Notes under the pieces: model-generated | What the model saw: the letters and a program-made list of their open reading frames with translations, nothing else | Databases searched by the model: none | What the model was told of the DNA's origin: nothing | Shown: positions 6,253 to 63,532 of the stretch, piece by piece | Position numbering within the stretch: the first letter of the stretch is position 1 | Layout of the letters: every line of letters starts with the position of its first letter | Origin: G963667145 sp963676515 [NCBI: Candidatus Cloacimonadota bacterium] | GTDB lineage: Bacteria; Cloacimonadota; Cloacimonadia; G963667145 | Assembly: GCA_963676515.1 (NCBI GenBank) | Contig: OY781061.1 | Span: 1,488,001-1,552,000, forward strand | Reading direction: 5' to 3' | DNA length: 64,000 nucleotides | Position numbers and translations under genes: made by a program

Positions 6253-7464
6253 ATGAAAACGATTAAGATATTTTTAGCTTCCTCAGAGGAATTGAAAGAG
6301 GACAGGTTAGGGTTTGAAATTTTTATAAATAGAAAAAACAAACACTATATTAAAAATGGGCTATTTTTTGAATTAGTTATTTGGGAAGATTTTATTGATG
6401 CTATTTCTAAAACTAGATTGCAGGATGAATACAAGAAAGCAATTACTGAGAGTGATATTTTTGTCTGTTTATTTAAAACAAAAGTAGGTAAATATACAAA
6501 AGAGGAGTTAGCACACGCTTTTGGGAAATTCCAAGAAAATGATAAACCTCTTATTTACACATATTTCAAAGATGTAGAAATCAAAACTAGTGAGATAACT
6601 AGGGGAATATCGGCTTTTTTGGATTTTAAGGAAGAGCTTTTAGACTTGGGACACTTCCTTACTAAATATACGAGTATAGCTGATTTGAAGGATCAGTTTG
6701 GAGATCAATTAGATAAAATTATTCCTAAATTGTCAAAAGACAATTTGAACAAAGCAAATCTTGTAACTAAATCAAAGAAGGTAGCCAAGGGAAATTTTAC
6801 CAACAGTGTGGGAATAGAGATGGTGCGGGTAGAGGCTGGCACATTCCAGATGGGTGGAGATGGTGAATATGATGGTAAGCCTGTGCATAGTGTGACTCTG
6901 AGCCAAGAGTACTACATTGGTAAATACCAGGTGACCCAAGCACAATGGACAGCGGTGATGGGCAGTAATCCTTCTTACTTCAAAGGGGGCAATTTGCCTG
7001 TGGAGCATGTCTCTTGGAACGATGTGCAAGAGTTTTTTACCAAACTGAACGAGATGGAAGGCACAAGTAAGTATAGACTGCCTACAGAAGCTGAGTGGGA
7101 GTTCGCTGCTCGGGGTGGTAACCAGAGTAAAGGTTACACTTATGCTGGCAGTAACAATATCGACGATGTCGCTTGGTATGGCTTAAATTCAAGTAGCACC
7201 CACGAAGTAGGGACGAAGTCCCCTAACGAGCTGGTTATCTACGATATGAGCGGTAATGTCTATGAATGGTGTAACGATTGGCATGGTGGTTACTCCAGTG
7301 ATGCGGTTACCGACCCTAGTGGACCTAGCACGGGCTCTGGCCGCGTGTTGCGTGGCGGTGGCTGGGGCGGCGGTGTTTACGGCTGCCGTGTGGCTGATCG
7401 CTACTCCAGCTATCCGAGCTATGGCAACCGCAGCCGCGGATTTCGCCTGGATAGTTCACTATAA
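6253..7464 (+). CDS. TIR/DUF4062-like domain fused to an FGE-sulfatase fold; candidate DGR target protein
   Basis: 403 residues. Residues 1-150 (KIFLASSEELKEDR; FELVIWEDF; SDIFVCLFKTKVGKYTKEEL) resemble the TIR/DUF4062-like domains found in bacterial conflict proteins. A charged linker is followed by an FGE/SUMF1-type C-lectin fold from about 187 (GIEMVRVEAGTFQMGG, LPTEAEWEFAARGG, NVYEWCNDW). The C-terminus reads RVLRGGGW...CRVADR...GFRL, the pattern seen at the mutable end of DGR target proteins. Variable-type codons there nearly all end in C or T, as expected if they derive from AAC/AAT by adenine mutagenesis. The first half is AT-rich and the C-terminal ~45 codons are strongly GC-rich, unlike the neighbours. 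No signal peptide, so probably cytoplasmic. A static FGE protein is the alternative. No reverse transcriptase, Avd or template repeat lies in this window. Confidence 0.75.
   Translation: MKTIKIFLASSEELKEDRLGFEIFINRKNKHYIKNGLFFELVIWEDFIDAISKTRLQDEYKKAITESDIFVCLFKTKVGKYTKEELAHAFGKFQENDKPLIYTYFKDVEIKTSEITRGISAFLDFKEELLDLGHFLTKYTSIADLKDQFGDQLDKIIPKLSKDNLNKANLVTKSKKVAKGNFTNSVGIEMVRVEAGTFQMGGDGEYDGKPVHSVTLSQEYYIGKYQVTQAQWTAVMGSNPSYFKGGNLPVEHVSWNDVQEFFTKLNEMEGTSKYRLPTEAEWEFAARGGNQSKGYTYAGSNNIDDVAWYGLNSSSTHEVGTKSPNELVIYDMSGNVYEWCNDWHGGYSSDAVTDPSGPSTGSGRVLRGGGWGGGVYGCRVADRYSSYPSYGNRSRGFRLDSSL
7339..7452 (+). other. candidate DGR variable region (VR)
   Basis: 3'-terminal part of the preceding gene, codons 363-400. 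Positions 370, 372-374, 376-378, 382, 384-387, 389-392 and 394-395 are GGC, GGT, TAC, TGC, GAT, TCC, AGC, TAT, AAC or CGC: every one is NNC or NNT. Scaffold codons (TGG, CGT, GTG, GCT, CCG, GGA, TTT) interrupt them at the spacing seen in known FGE-type VRs. The segment is depleted in A and has much higher GC than the rest of the gene. This is direct sequence observation; assignment as a VR is inference because the template repeat is not in the window. Confidence 0.6.
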
Positions 7465-7520: not shown

Positions 7521-7682
7521 TTGGATTCCTGCTTCCGCAGGAATGAGGGAGAGGGACAGGGAGCACTCACCACTACCCATTCCTGCACACCACTCGCTTT
7601 GCTTTCTTACTTGCTCTCATTCCTGCACACCACCAGCCTTGTGTTACCACCCACCCTCATTCACGCGGAAGCGGGAATCCAA
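7521..7682. repeat. 29-base inverted-repeat pair of a dispersed family
   Basis: The left arm (7521-7549) begins TTGGATTCCTGCTTCCGC and ends GAATGAGGG. The right arm (7654-7682), read on the minus strand, begins TTGGATTCCCGCTTCCGC and ends GAATGAGGG. The arms differ at only a few positions and are about 104 bases apart. A third member lies at 32443-32471. Confidence 0.75.
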
Positions 7683-38151: not shown

Positions 38152-39684
38152 GTGACTAATGGCGTGATAATTTTAGATTTTGGCTCTCAATACAATCAGC
38201 TGATAGCTAGAAGAATAAGAGAGATGGGAGTCTATGCCGAAATTTTGCCTTTTTCTGTAGAGATAGAGAAAATTCGTAAGAAAAAGTCTGTGGGCATTAT
38301 TTTATCAGGTGGTCCTTCCTCTGTTTACGCTGCTAACTCTCCGCAAATTTCCCCAGAAATTTTCGAGTTAGGTGTTCCGATTTTGGGAATTTGCTACGGG
38401 ATGCAACTCATCCAAAAGATGTTGGGTGGTAAAGTGGAGGAAGTGGGAAAGAAGGAGTTCGGTAAGTCGGAGATGAGAATATTGCAGAATTCTTCTTTGC
38501 TGGAGGGAGTCCCCGAGAAATCTACTGTTTGGATGAGTCATGGAGATAGCGTTACCAATATTGCCCAAGGTTTTACCAAGAGTGCATGTACAGCTTCTTC
38601 CATTGCGGTATTGGAAGATAATGGGCGAAAGATTTATACTCTCCAATTTCATCCAGAAGTTACTCACTCGGAGTACGGCAAAAAAATTTTAGAAAATTTT
38701 GTGTTTAAGATTTGTGAAGGCAAAAAAAACTGGAATATCACCGATTACATAGACAAGAGCATAGCCGAGATAAGGAAAATTGTGGGCAAGGATCGAGTTG
38801 TTTTGGGGCTGTCTGGAGGTGTGGATTCTTCTGTGGCTGCGGTGCTGATCAATAGAGCTATTGGGGAGAGGTTGACCTGCATTTTCGTGGACACTGGACT
38901 TTTGCGGATGGATGAAGCACGGAATGTGCGGGAAACTTATGAGAAAAATTTCAAGATTGCTATAAAATATGTGAATGCGGAAGAAGAGTTTTTGGAAAGT
39001 TTGCAAGGTGTGAGTGAGCCTGAGGAGAAGCGGAAGATTATCGGGCGAGAGTTTGTCGAGATTTTCAATCGGGAGGCTGAAAAACTTGCTGGGGTTAAAT
39101 TTTTGGCTCAAGGCACTATTTATCCCGATGTGATTGAGTCCGTGTCTGTAAATGGTCCTTCGGCAACGATAAAGAGCCATCACAATGTGGGCGGGCTGCC
39201 AGAGAAGATGAACTTGAAAATATTAGAGCCTCTGCGAGAGCTTTTTAAAGACGAAGTTCGGGAGTTAGGTTTTTTGTTGGGAATACCCAAGCAGATGGTA
39301 GCCAGACATCCTTTCCCTGGTCCTGGTTTGGGGATTAGGATTTTGGGAGATGTAGATAAGCAAAAATGTGATATACTCAGGGAAGCTGACAATATTTTTA
39401 TTAGAGAACTAAAAGACAAGGGGTTTTACGACGATGTTTCACAAGCTTTTGTGGTTTTATTGCCGGTAAAGTCGGTAGGCGTGATGGGCGATTTGCGGAC
39501 TTACGAATACACGGCTGTATTGCGGTGCGTGGACACAACAGATTTTATGACTGCCACTTGGTCGAGGTTGCCTTACGATTTTCTGGAGCATGTATCTAGT
39601 CGGATTATCAATGAAGTCCTTGGTATAAATAGGGTTACTTATGACATTTCTGGCAAGCCGCCTGCTACGATAGAGTGGGAATAA
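38152..39684 (+). CDS. guaA: GMP synthase (glutamine-hydrolysing)
   Basis: 510 residues. The N-terminal class I glutamine amidotransferase has the nucleophile Cys81 in GICYGMQL and His-Glu in [10 protein letters not shown]. The ATP pyrophosphatase has the PP-loop [11 protein letters not shown] near 222. The C-terminal dimerisation domain ends KPPATIEWE, the standard end. Converts XMP to GMP. GTG start with GAGAGGAGAAAA before it. guaB follows after 15 bases, giving both steps from IMP to GMP. Confidence 0.97.
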
Positions 39685-61708: not shown

Positions 61709-62533
61709 TTATTTACTGTAAAGGTAGATAGGTAAATTGATGATTTCCATCTGATCTCTAGGAATATTAACCAAAGTTTCTTGTAATTTTTCAAAAGCTC
61801 TTTGGTCGTTTTCAAAATCTATTATGAGATTAAGTGGTTTTTTGGTGGCAATAAATTTTAGCAGTTCCATATCATCTTCTTTGCTAGGAAGTAGACTAAC
61901 AATATATTCTAAGCCAAAATTTATTTCTTTAGGAGTTGGGAGTATTAGTTCTTCATTTTTCTTTAAAAAATTGTTATCTTGTATTTGGTTTGGGAATAGA
62001 ATATTTATCTTGTTGTTAGATTGGATGTTAAGTACAGTGATATAACAATCTTTACTGCATTTTATGCTTAAAGACAGATTTTCACCCTCTCGTAGAGTAG
62101 TTTTGTTTGTAGAGGCATCAAGGTTAAAGTAGGGGTCTTTTTCTTCTTTTTGTTTCCCAGTTGTTACTTTTATTACCAGCTTTAGTTTAACCTCATTATC
62201 TTTGAGATATTTTCTTTCTTCTACAATTGAGCTATTGATGATAGTGCCTTTGCTACAGGTTGAAAGATATTTAGCAAAAATATCGGTAAACTTTTTGTTT
62301 CCTTCTGATTCCATAAAAACGCTGGAAGCGTTGACATTTATACCTTCATACTCTAGAGCTTTGTTGTAGGCTTTATCTTTAGCAGATTTAAGAGCTTCTT
62401 GAGGAGATAGATTTTCCATAGACTGATAAACGGTCACCAAATACTGGAAATCTTTTATTTTACAGATGGAGTCTAACTCTAAACCATAAAGGTGGGAAAA
62501 TAACAAAAGTAGCAGTGGTAAAAATTTTTTCAT
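61709..62533 (-). CDS. exported protein with a DUF4384-like C-terminal domain
   Basis: 274 residues. Signal peptide KKFLPLLLLLFSHLYG. The N-half (SAKDKAYNKALEYEGINVNASS; LKLVIKVTTG) resembles LPP20/DUF-type repeats found with surface lipoproteins. The C-half LREGENLSLSIKCSKDCYITVLNIQSNNKINILFPN matches the DUF4384 pattern, a beta domain that accompanies peptidases and caspase-like proteins. It starts one base after the caspase-like gene, so the pair is co-translated. Confidence 0.7.
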   Translation of the reverse strand: MKKFLPLLLLLFSHLYGLELDSICKIKDFQYLVTVYQSMENLSPQEALKSAKDKAYNKALEYEGINVNASSVFMESEGNKKFTDIFAKYLSTCSKGTIINSSIVEERKYLKDNEVKLKLVIKVTTGKQKEEKDPYFNLDASTNKTTLREGENLSLSIKCSKDCYITVLNIQSNNKINILFPNQIQDNNFLKKNEELILPTPKEINFGLEYIVSLLPSKEDDMELLKFIATKKPLNLIIDFENDQRAFEKLQETLVNIPRDQMEIINLPIYLYSK

Positions 62534-63532
62534 TTATCTTATTTTGGCAATGTCAAAAGAGTTGTTTCTCACTAGTTGGGGATGTTGGTCTCGACTGCTG
62601 ATTCTGCGAGCAAAGTAGGTGACTTTTTCGCTGAGGTAATTATCCAACTCTAGGGATGAAATTATTTTGTTTTTGTCTATGTCGGCTTCGCCTTGGATGC
62701 CTTTGAGGAAAAAATAGGTAAAAAGAGAATGCTCTTTTTCGGGATACCACGAAGAAACTTCCGTATTTGATGCGGAGGTAAAGATGCAAGTGTTCTTTTT
62801 TAGCAGATAGCTGGTTTTTACTTTTGGCATAATGGGCGAAACATTTTTAAGGAGCATTCCTTTTTCGCTCACGCCACTAAAGCAGGCGTCCAAAACAACA
62901 GTTAGAGATTTATACTCAAGTTTGCTCAAGTTTTCATAAAAAAGGTTGAGATTGTAACCACTCAGGTCGAGTCTGGAAGGGTCAGCGTTGCTGGGGACGA
63001 AATATCCGTTTTTGTTTTCGGGATTGGGAGCACCGTGTCCTACATAGTAAACAAAAACATCAGATTTTCCCTCTTGTATCCAGTCATAAAGTTTTCCTTT
63101 GTAATTGTTATCATTGCCAAAAACGGTGATAAAATCTGTTTGCGAGGCATTTTCGATGTAGATGATGTTGTTGTCATCATAGCCTAGGGTGTTGATTAAG
63201 TATTTTTTCATATATTGGGCATCGTTGAGTGCGAAATCGACATTGGGAACATCTTGGTTGGAGTAATCTTTGTTGCCGATAATCACGCCGATTGCGTGTT
63301 TGTTTTTTTCACTGGCAAGAGGGATGTTTTGGTGTATATCTGTGAGAGGGACTTCTTTGTGTTTTGTAAGTGTAGATTGATAATTATTAGTTTCAATTTT
63401 ATTTTCATTAATAGTGGACTTTGAAATGACAGGGTAAGGGTCATAAGTATTGCCATAAATTACAGCTTTAGTAATGCTTTTAGCACATCCACAGAAAACA
63501 GTTAAACAAAAGAGGATAAAAATATTTTTCAT
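62534..63532 (-). CDS. caspase-like (C14) lipoprotein
   Basis: 332 residues. N-terminal lipobox CGC with Cys16 after FILFCLTVF. From about 78 a caspase/metacaspase p20-like domain: AIGVIIGNKDY, DVPNVDFALNDAQYMKKYL, the catalytic His166 in YYVGHGAPN, and Cys217 in VVLDACFSG. A lipoprotein anchor places it outside the cytoplasm. Cytosolic caspases in bacteria act in defence; this one may instead process envelope proteins. Middle gene of a three-gene minus-strand operon with a small lipoprotein and a DUF4384-like protein. Confidence 0.83.
   Translation of the reverse strand: MKNIFILFCLTVFCGCAKSITKAVIYGNTYDPYPVISKSTINENKIETNNYQSTLTKHKEVPLTDIHQNIPLASEKNKHAIGVIIGNKDYSNQDVPNVDFALNDAQYMKKYLINTLGYDDNNIIYIENASQTDFITVFGNDNNYKGKLYDWIQEGKSDVFVYYVGHGAPNPENKNGYFVPSNADPSRLDLSGYNLNLFYENLSKLEYKSLTVVLDACFSGVSEKGMLLKNVSPIMPKVKTSYLLKKNTCIFTSASNTEVSSWYPEKEHSLFTYFFLKGIQGEADIDKNKIISSLELDNYLSEKVTYFARRISSRDQHPQLVRNNSFDIAKIR

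What the first reader, a model, noticed from the sequence alone, without database searches (positions are those of the whole stretch)
7339..7464. Candidate DGR variable region at the 3' end of an FGE-fold gene, with no reverse transcriptase nearby
Codons 370-395 show the fingerprint of adenine-directed mutagenesis. About 18 variable-type positions are all NNC or NNT, interleaved with fixed scaffold codons at the spacing of known FGE-type VRs, ending in GFRL a few codons before the stop. A is depleted and GC is high, unlike the rest of the gene. The classic C-terminus of DGR targets (RVLRGG-W-...-R-A-NR...GFR) is matched. The absence of RT, Avd and template repeat suggests a dispersed target served in trans, or a relic.
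Basis: partly seen in the sequence, partly recalled or inferred. Interest (0 to 1): 0.85.

Follow-up and report, generated by a model that had tools for sequence, protein, structure and literature searches.

The report
Immune-like gene with a hypermutable tip
A bacterial gene that joins a probable cell-suicide enzyme part to a sensor whose tip carries the marks of programmed random mutation, although the mutating machinery itself is not in the stretch of DNA we can see.

Summary
The last ~35 codons of the 403-aa gene at 6253-7464 look like a diversity-generating retroelement (DGR) variable region: an adenine-poor scaffold (RVLRGG.W...C.VA.R....P...GFR), NNY codons at the variable-type positions, and GC 67% against 49% in the FGE core. 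None of 17,118 same-length windows in 55 other genes is as adenine-poor or GC-rich.

Calibrated on FGE tails elsewhere, the window's adenine score (<=1) is reached by 22 of 37 tails from genomes or records with a DGR reverse transcriptase (RT) and by 0 of 30 without. Four tails of a genome with a broken RT were set aside; one of these scores 0. The closest solved structure is TvpA, a known DGR target.

No RT, Avd or template was found in the 64 kb, and the host genome is not held. Active in trans versus relic is undecided; relatives show both.

TIR-FGE proteins of the same layout sit beside RT and template in two genomes. I read it as a TIR-like effector fused to a hypervariable sensor.

The parts
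6253..7464 (+). Target gene, 403 aa: DUF4062/TIR-like N-terminus + FGE (C-type-lectin-fold) C-terminus
6253..6732 (+). N-terminal TIR-like (DUF4062-like) domain, residues 1-160, GC about 29%; E85 (bases 6505-6507) is the invariant Glu
   Evidence: Pfam below cut-off: TIR_2 22.3 of 28 bits, DUF4062 17.1 of 24.7; 58% identical to an annotated DUF4062 protein on an Acaryochloris plasmid; E85 invariant in 14 of 14 aligned sequences, window included; hhalign, weakly (probability 37%, E 3.7e-4), places it on the Glu of a DUF4062 domain; PADLOC candidate PDC-S60, 28 bits
6817..7449 (+). FGE-sulfatase domain, residues 189-399
   Evidence: Pfam PF03781 149.5 bits; best PDB match TvpA 2y3c E 3.8e-38, next best 6.4e-19
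7342..7446 (+). Variable region (codons 364-398), adenine-poor scaffold with NNY codons at the variable-type positions
7447..7464 (+). End of the gene and stop codon after the variable region
7521..7682 (.). 162-bp element with 29-nt inverted terminal repeats (90% complementary), MITE-like, 56 bp beyond the stop codon; link to the gene not shown

Best explanation
The gene is a target of a diversity-generating retroelement. An error-prone RT copies an RNA of a template repeat located elsewhere in the genome, misreads template adenines, and the cDNA replaces codons ~364-398. Residues of the binding face of the FGE (C-type-lectin) fold thus vary while the scaffold stays fixed. The FGE domain is a binding scaffold, not a formylglycine-generating enzyme: the first of the two Cys of the enzyme's C-terminal segment aligns with G373. 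The N-terminal DUF4062-like domain is a TIR-like effector, probably an NAD+-consuming enzyme with E85 as catalytic Glu, kept off until the variable tip binds an invader molecule. The protein would then be a one-chain, programmably diversified defence receptor. Shown: the DGR fingerprint, the fold family by sequence, the domain order, the conserved Glu. Inferred: service in trans (now or until recently), NADase activity, anti-invader role.
For: Fingerprint: the window tail has 1 adenine in codons ending A/G; <=1 is seen in 22 of 37 tails from 10 genomes or records with a DGR RT and in 0 of 30 tails from 22 without; AUC 0.93. At the 11 codons that are Asn in at least 5 of 9 recovered templates, the window has 11 of 11 NNY codons, of which 1 is still Asn. 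18 of 33 tails compared with a template of their own genome match it with <=3 non-adenine mismatches, 13 of them with none. Six of these 18 lie on another contig or about 100 kb from the template, so trans service of FGE targets is common in the genomes compared. TvpA is the nearest PDB chain, and its variable tail aligns without a gap. Layout: TIR_2 (83 and 81 bits) + FGE + variable tail, 402 and 390 aa, beside RT and template in G038 (L116) and G380 (L120). N-terminus: two relatives are fused to NB-ARC NTPases (L024, L029). DUF4062 is reported as a TIR-like NADase with a conserved Glu that gives abortive phage defence (PMC13174449, preprint; abstract, passages and the first of six parts of the text seen).
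Against: No RT, Avd or template in the 64 kb. Host genome not held; a genome-collection scan with the neighbouring CinA found only 35%-identical loci, and viral scans with the target protein and a template-like pattern found nothing. The fingerprint can outlive the machinery: G007, almost one contig, has two such tails (2 and 3 adenines) and no RT, and G015, whose only close match to the DGR RT is in two pieces, has a tail with 0. None of the nine templates I recovered fits the window tail: 41-51 mismatches, of which 17-23 at template adenines. DUF4062 and TIR_2 are below Pfam's cut-offs. The single-sequence AlphaFold model of the N-terminus failed (mean pLDDT 38), and its profile found no PDB chain. 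No strain variation could be examined.
Confidence: 0.7

Rival explanations
1. Relic: the gene was diversified by a DGR that the genome has since lost, or it arrived by horizontal transfer without the machinery; the tail is now frozen.
For: PMC4891356 (passages seen) reports T. denticola strains with 2-6 target genes and no RT or template. G007 here: two DGR-like tails, no RVT_1 hit, no DGR RT. G015: DGR-like RT in two pieces and a tail with score 0. The gene is mosaic (29%, 49% and 67% GC) and so may be foreign.
Against: 0 of 30 tails from genomes or records without a DGR RT have <=1 such adenine (the four G015 tails, one of which scores 0, are not in that count). The window has 1, within the 0-2 seen in all 18 template-matched tails. 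The frame is intact.
Confidence: 0.3
2. An ordinary FGE-family tail whose Asn/Ser/Tyr/Gly-rich C-terminus and local GC rise merely resemble a variable region.
For: Some FGE tails without a DGR RT also have NNY fractions up to 0.82. The window tail fits none of the nine templates recovered.
Against: Those tails keep adenines in codons ending A/G (mean 11.4 against 1.8 in RT+ rows). No window among 17,118 in the window's other genes looks like this. Nearest PDB chain is a DGR target.
Confidence: 0.05
3. DGR target as above, but the N-terminus is not an NADase: a signalling or scaffold TIR-like domain, or an inactive one.
For: Similarity to DUF4062 is below Pfam's cut-off; I know of no enzyme test for this subfamily.
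Against: E85 and G79 invariant in 14 of 14; NB-ARC fusions; Glu placed on the DUF4062 Glu, weakly.
Confidence: 0.35

Closest known systems
TvpA and its dispersed paralogues, Treponema denticola DGR (2y3c; PMC4891356)
   Same: FGE/C-type-lectin domain with a C-terminal variable region of the same length and scaffold (GSGRVLRGG.W...C.V..R....P...GFRL); targets far from RT and template, and targets in strains without RT, are reported
   Different: The FGE part of the window protein matches the 294-residue TvpA chain from 29 to 290, which leaves no room for a DUF4062-like front in that chain
   Same: About 400 aa, N-terminal TIR-type domain, C-terminal FGE with a variable tail
   Different: Canonical TIR_2 (83 and 81 bits) instead of a DUF4062-like domain; RT and template adjacent; L116 is 37% identical over the aligned part, mostly FGE
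DGR-diversified putative antigen sensors of multicellular bacteria (Dore 2024, PMC10907252)
   Same: C-type-lectin targets, some with effector domains including TIR; remote targets diversified in trans
   Different: The targets described in the passages I saw are mostly STAND/NACHT or vWA/MoxR systems; those passages name no DUF4062
Swarozyc DUF4062 NADase (PMC13174449)
   Same: DUF4062-type N-terminus, conserved Glu, C-terminal accessory domain
   Different: Its accessory domain has an HTH/winged-helix core and the phage portal activates it; here the accessory domain is a variable FGE domain. 'FGE', 'formylglycine' and 'lectin' do not occur in that paper's main text
Prosthecochloris aestuarii plasmid pPAES01 DGR (L011)
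   Same: FGE targets with the same scaffold logic
   Different: RT, Avd and template are next to the targets

Membership tests
DGR target gene (FGE/C-type-lectin type) | C-terminal C-type-lectin/FGE domain ending in a variable region | tested here: met
DGR target gene (FGE/C-type-lectin type) | NNY codons at variable positions with an adenine-poor scaffold | tested here: met
DGR system | Template repeat that differs from the variable region only at template adenines | tested here: inconclusive
   None in the 64 kb; genome not held
DGR system | DGR-clade reverse transcriptase (and Avd) | tested here: inconclusive
   None in the 64 kb; genome not held
DGR system | Variation between strains or reads confined to the variable region | not testable with these tools
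   No strain or close relative found
DUF4062 / TIR-like NADase | Pfam DUF4062 above its cut-off | tested here: not met
   17.1 of 24.7 bits; its Acaryochloris relative 23.4. Called DUF4062-like, not filed as a member
DUF4062 / TIR-like NADase | Conserved catalytic Glu | tested here: met
   E85 invariant in 14 of 14; aligned to the DUF4062 Glu, weakly
DUF4062 / TIR-like NADase | NAD+ hydrolysis | not testable with these tools
   needs an enzyme assay
Formylglycine-generating enzyme | Pair of Cys in the C-terminal segment (that both are catalytic is recalled) | tested here: not met
   First Cys of 6muj aligns with G373, second with C378 (read from the alignment)

The most novel reading that the evidence does not exclude
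A single-gene, self-contained, somatically diversifying immune receptor: a DUF4062-like NADase whose trigger is an FGE domain rewritten by a DGR acting in trans, so that one template can serve receptors with different effector domains (TIR, DUF4062-like, STAND) dispersed over the genome.
Probability: 0.35. Interest if true: 0.8.

Novelty: new variant of a known kind. Interest (0 to 1): 0.52.

Why it matters
[quoted passage not shown] A short protein with a predicted NAD+-destroying domain on one end and a hypervariable binding face on the other is a tractable candidate: two assays (NAD+ loss and phage challenge in a laboratory E. coli) would show whether bacteria use retroelement-driven variation for adaptive defence. 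The adenine score used here also gives a simple way to find DGR targets with no RT nearby, which Roux et al. 2021 say their approach would not detect (PMC8144416, passage).

Tried and rejected
Host identity: CinA in genome contigs gave only two 35%-identical loci, titled Terrimonas and Flavisolibacter. In 80 genomes of that phylum (Bacteroidota, phylum recalled) GuaA is 66% identical in one genome and 51-59% in the other matches longer than 400 residues; LysRS is 48-53% in 7 genomes. This does not place the window there. The host stays unidentified, and all genome comparisons come from that one phylum because it was the only one I could reach.

Viral origin: no relative of the protein, no exact match to a template-like pattern and no relative of the N-terminal profile in viral contigs. 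Phage hits cover only residues 158-358, within or next to the FGE domain.

N-terminal fold: AlphaFold2 without an alignment gave pLDDT 38 and was not used further. The profile of the N-terminus found no PDB chain up to E 1; I judged the two weak phmmer hits chance. No Rfam family at gathering score and no tRNA in the window.

Selection behind the tail statistics: from the capped list of FGE matches I held 30 automatic loci plus 60 regions that I picked, some of them for their RT, plus the loci, plasmid loci and loci. A regular expression then kept 37 RT+ and 30 RT- tails; tails not fitting it were dropped. One search counts 39 RT+ rows because it holds two rows of one-residue-shorter duplicates. 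Four tails of G015 (RT in two pieces) were set aside; their scores are 0, 10, 11 and 24, so counting G015 as RT- would give 1 of 34. RT+ means a match at E < 1e-40 to the P. aestuarii RT or that plasmid itself. Of the 22 RT- sources, 20 are genomes, of which 17 have no match at E <= 0.001 and 3 (G059, G080, G118) only weak ones (best 1.9e-14); 2 are plasmid records (Spirosoma, Methanomethylovorans) whose genomes were not searched. Completeness of the genomes is not told, so some may have an RT that was not assembled. 15 of 33 RT+ tails compared did not match a template that I held; some are probably relics, others may use templates I did not fetch. Four RT+ tails had no template to compare (G026, G143 and the two of P. 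aestuarii); the latter do not align without gaps to their template, which one search shows in pieces.

Change after checking: I first gave 12 instead of 13 fully matched tails, G374 instead of G373, and 12 instead of 11 Asn positions, and had left the G015 tail out of the evidence against. Because of G015 I moved the relic rival from 0.25 to 0.3 and the best explanation from 0.72 to 0.7.

Full report
What is there. The gene at 6253-7464 encodes 403 residues. Pfam finds an FGE-sulfatase domain at residues 189-399 (149.5 bits) and weak TIR_2, NPHP3 and DUF4062 matches at the N-terminus, all below their cut-offs. GC rises in three steps along the gene, 29% (N-terminus), 49% (FGE core) and 67% (tail), while 55 other genes of the window average 42%.

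The tail. Codons 364-398 read RVLRGGGWGGGVYGCRVADRYSSYPSYGNRSRGFR. I recovered nine templates from seven other genomes; eight read close to RV.RGGSWNNNA(E/R)NCRSA(N/Y)RNNN.P.NRNNN(V/I)GFR and the ninth (L105) departs further. At the 11 codons that are AAC/AAT in at least 5 of the 9, the window has GGC GGC GGT GGC TAC TCC AGC TAT AAC CGC AGC: 11 of 11 NNY, 1 still Asn. Codon 370 is GGC where 7 of 9 templates have AGC. This is what reverse transcription with errors at template adenines leaves behind. Eleven of 35 columns carry the same residue in the window and in all nine templates. Against a shared template: several window codons (for example GTT375, TAC376, GTG380, GGC391, CGC395) cannot come from the majority codon of those templates by changing adenines alone, and overall there are 41-51 mismatches, 17-23 of them at template adenines. 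So none of the nine is its template. TvpA also has Val at position 380, so the window's own template probably belongs to another branch.

Is it more than chance? Inside the window, none of 17,118 windows of 35 codons from 55 genes has as few as one adenine in codons ending A/G (minimum 4) or as high a GC. Across genomes I compared FGE tails by whether their source has a DGR-type RT. 22 of 37 RT+ tails and 0 of 30 RT- tails have <=1; at <=3 it is 31 of 37 and 4 of 30, and those four come from G007 and G133. The window tail (1; NNY 0.83; GC 0.67) lies in the RT+ group. Set aside: four tails of G015, whose DGR-like RT is in two pieces; one scores 0, the others 10, 11 and 24. Confounder: the RT+ genomes may be related to each other. 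The rise within the same gene (window 0.51 just upstream to 0.67; RT+ mean 0.50 to 0.66; RT- mean 0.47 to 0.54) argues that the composition of the genome is not the cause.

Where is the machinery? Not in the 64 kb: no RT, no Avd, no second FGE gene and no template. The host genome is not held and only 6.2 kb upstream of the gene is visible. In the comparison genomes, remote service is common: 18 of 33 tails compared match a template of their own genome with <=3 non-adenine mismatches, 13 with none. Six of the 18 (L056, L089, L104, L106, L110, L114) lie on another contig or about 100 kb away; four of these six have no non-adenine mismatch. Binning errors between contigs cannot be excluded. Loss of the machinery also occurs: G007 (contig of 3,293,456 bases in a 3.3-Mb genome) has two DGR-like tails and no match to the DGR RT or to RVT_1. 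One of its targets has nearly the same Hsp70-like front as a target of the RT+ genome G100. G015 carries two pieces of a DGR-like RT about 450 bp beyond an FGE match. In print, T. denticola has both remote targets and strains with targets but no RT or template (PMC4891356, passages), and Thiohalocapsa has targets best explained by trans activity (PMC10907252, abstract and passages). So the absence near this gene is neither surprising nor decisive.

The N-terminus. Residues 1-160 are 58% identical to a protein annotated DUF4062 on an Acaryochloris plasmid, beside genes annotated leucine-rich repeat and COR domain. 33 of 395 genomes of one phylum have a match at E <= 0.001. In 14 aligned sequences, window included, E85, G79 and T82 are invariant. 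hhalign places E85 on the Glu of a DUF4062 domain that passes Pfam's cut-off, but weakly (probability 37%, E 3.7e-4). Two relatives continue into NB-ARC NTPases, and PADLOC's candidate defence family PDC-S60 matches (28 bits). None of the homologues showed an FGE domain after the N-terminus within the at most 1.5 kb held beyond the match, so the fusion was not seen there. A 2026 preprint reports DUF4062 as TIR-like NADases that defend against phage through a conserved Glu (PMC13174449; abstract, passages and the first of six parts seen).

Same layout elsewhere. In G038 (L116) and G380 (L120), targets of 402 and 390 residues with a canonical TIR_2 domain (83 and 81 bits) in front of an FGE domain sit beside RT and template. 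Their tails match the template with 1 non-adenine mismatch each. The window protein is the DUF4062-like counterpart of this layout.

Mechanism. Best reading: a TIR-like effector joined to a retroelement-diversified binding domain, resting until the variable face meets a foreign molecule. The fingerprint and the domain order are shown. Service in trans, NADase activity and defence are inferred. The FGE domain is unlikely to make formylglycine: the first Cys of the enzyme 6muj aligns with G373 (read; that this Cys is catalytic is recalled).

Novelty. Remote and orphan FGE targets are known, and TIR domains on C-type-lectin DGR targets are mentioned in PMC10907252. No paper held contains both 'DUF4062' and 'formylglycine' or both 'DUF4062' and 'diversity-generating'; two with 'DUF4062' and 'C-type lectin' are about animals, seen as a listing only. 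The library holds open-licence PMC papers only. I therefore call it a new variant of a known kind.

Noticed in passing
7521-7682: A 162-bp stretch with 29-nt inverted terminal repeats (90% complementary) just after the target gene, MITE-like; MITE-like repeats at DGR loci are mentioned in PMC10907252.
   Followed up: partly
62534-63532 (-), 61709-62533 (-): A caspase-like protein (NCBIfam EACC1-associated caspase, 63 bits, below the cut-off of 140; PADLOC caspase 16 bits) next to a gene without a family hit; possibly another defence or signalling pair.
   Followed up: no
L116:197-2332, L120:10-1839, L093:3494-5320: Larger FGE targets (609-712 aa held; L093 and L120 cut at the 5' side) at the RT loci. 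L093 and L120 begin with GKTT and an LLLDAFDEY stretch (NTPase-like by eye, no Pfam hit there). In L116 and L120 one template matches both this gene and the TIR-FGE gene.
   Followed up: partly
L092, L096, L111: FGE tails HVLRGGSWNDF... nearly identical in three genomes (G050, G100, G046) that have DGRs: candidate frozen targets, with 5-6 adenines in codons ending A/G, useful as a relic standard.
   Followed up: partly
38152-39684: GuaA is 66% identical to one genome (G014) but 51-59% to the other long matches in 80 genomes of that phylum, while LysRS of G014 is 50%: possible horizontal transfer.
   Followed up: no
whole window: No tRNA and no Rfam match at gathering score in 64 kb, and the host lineage could not be placed.
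   Followed up: partly
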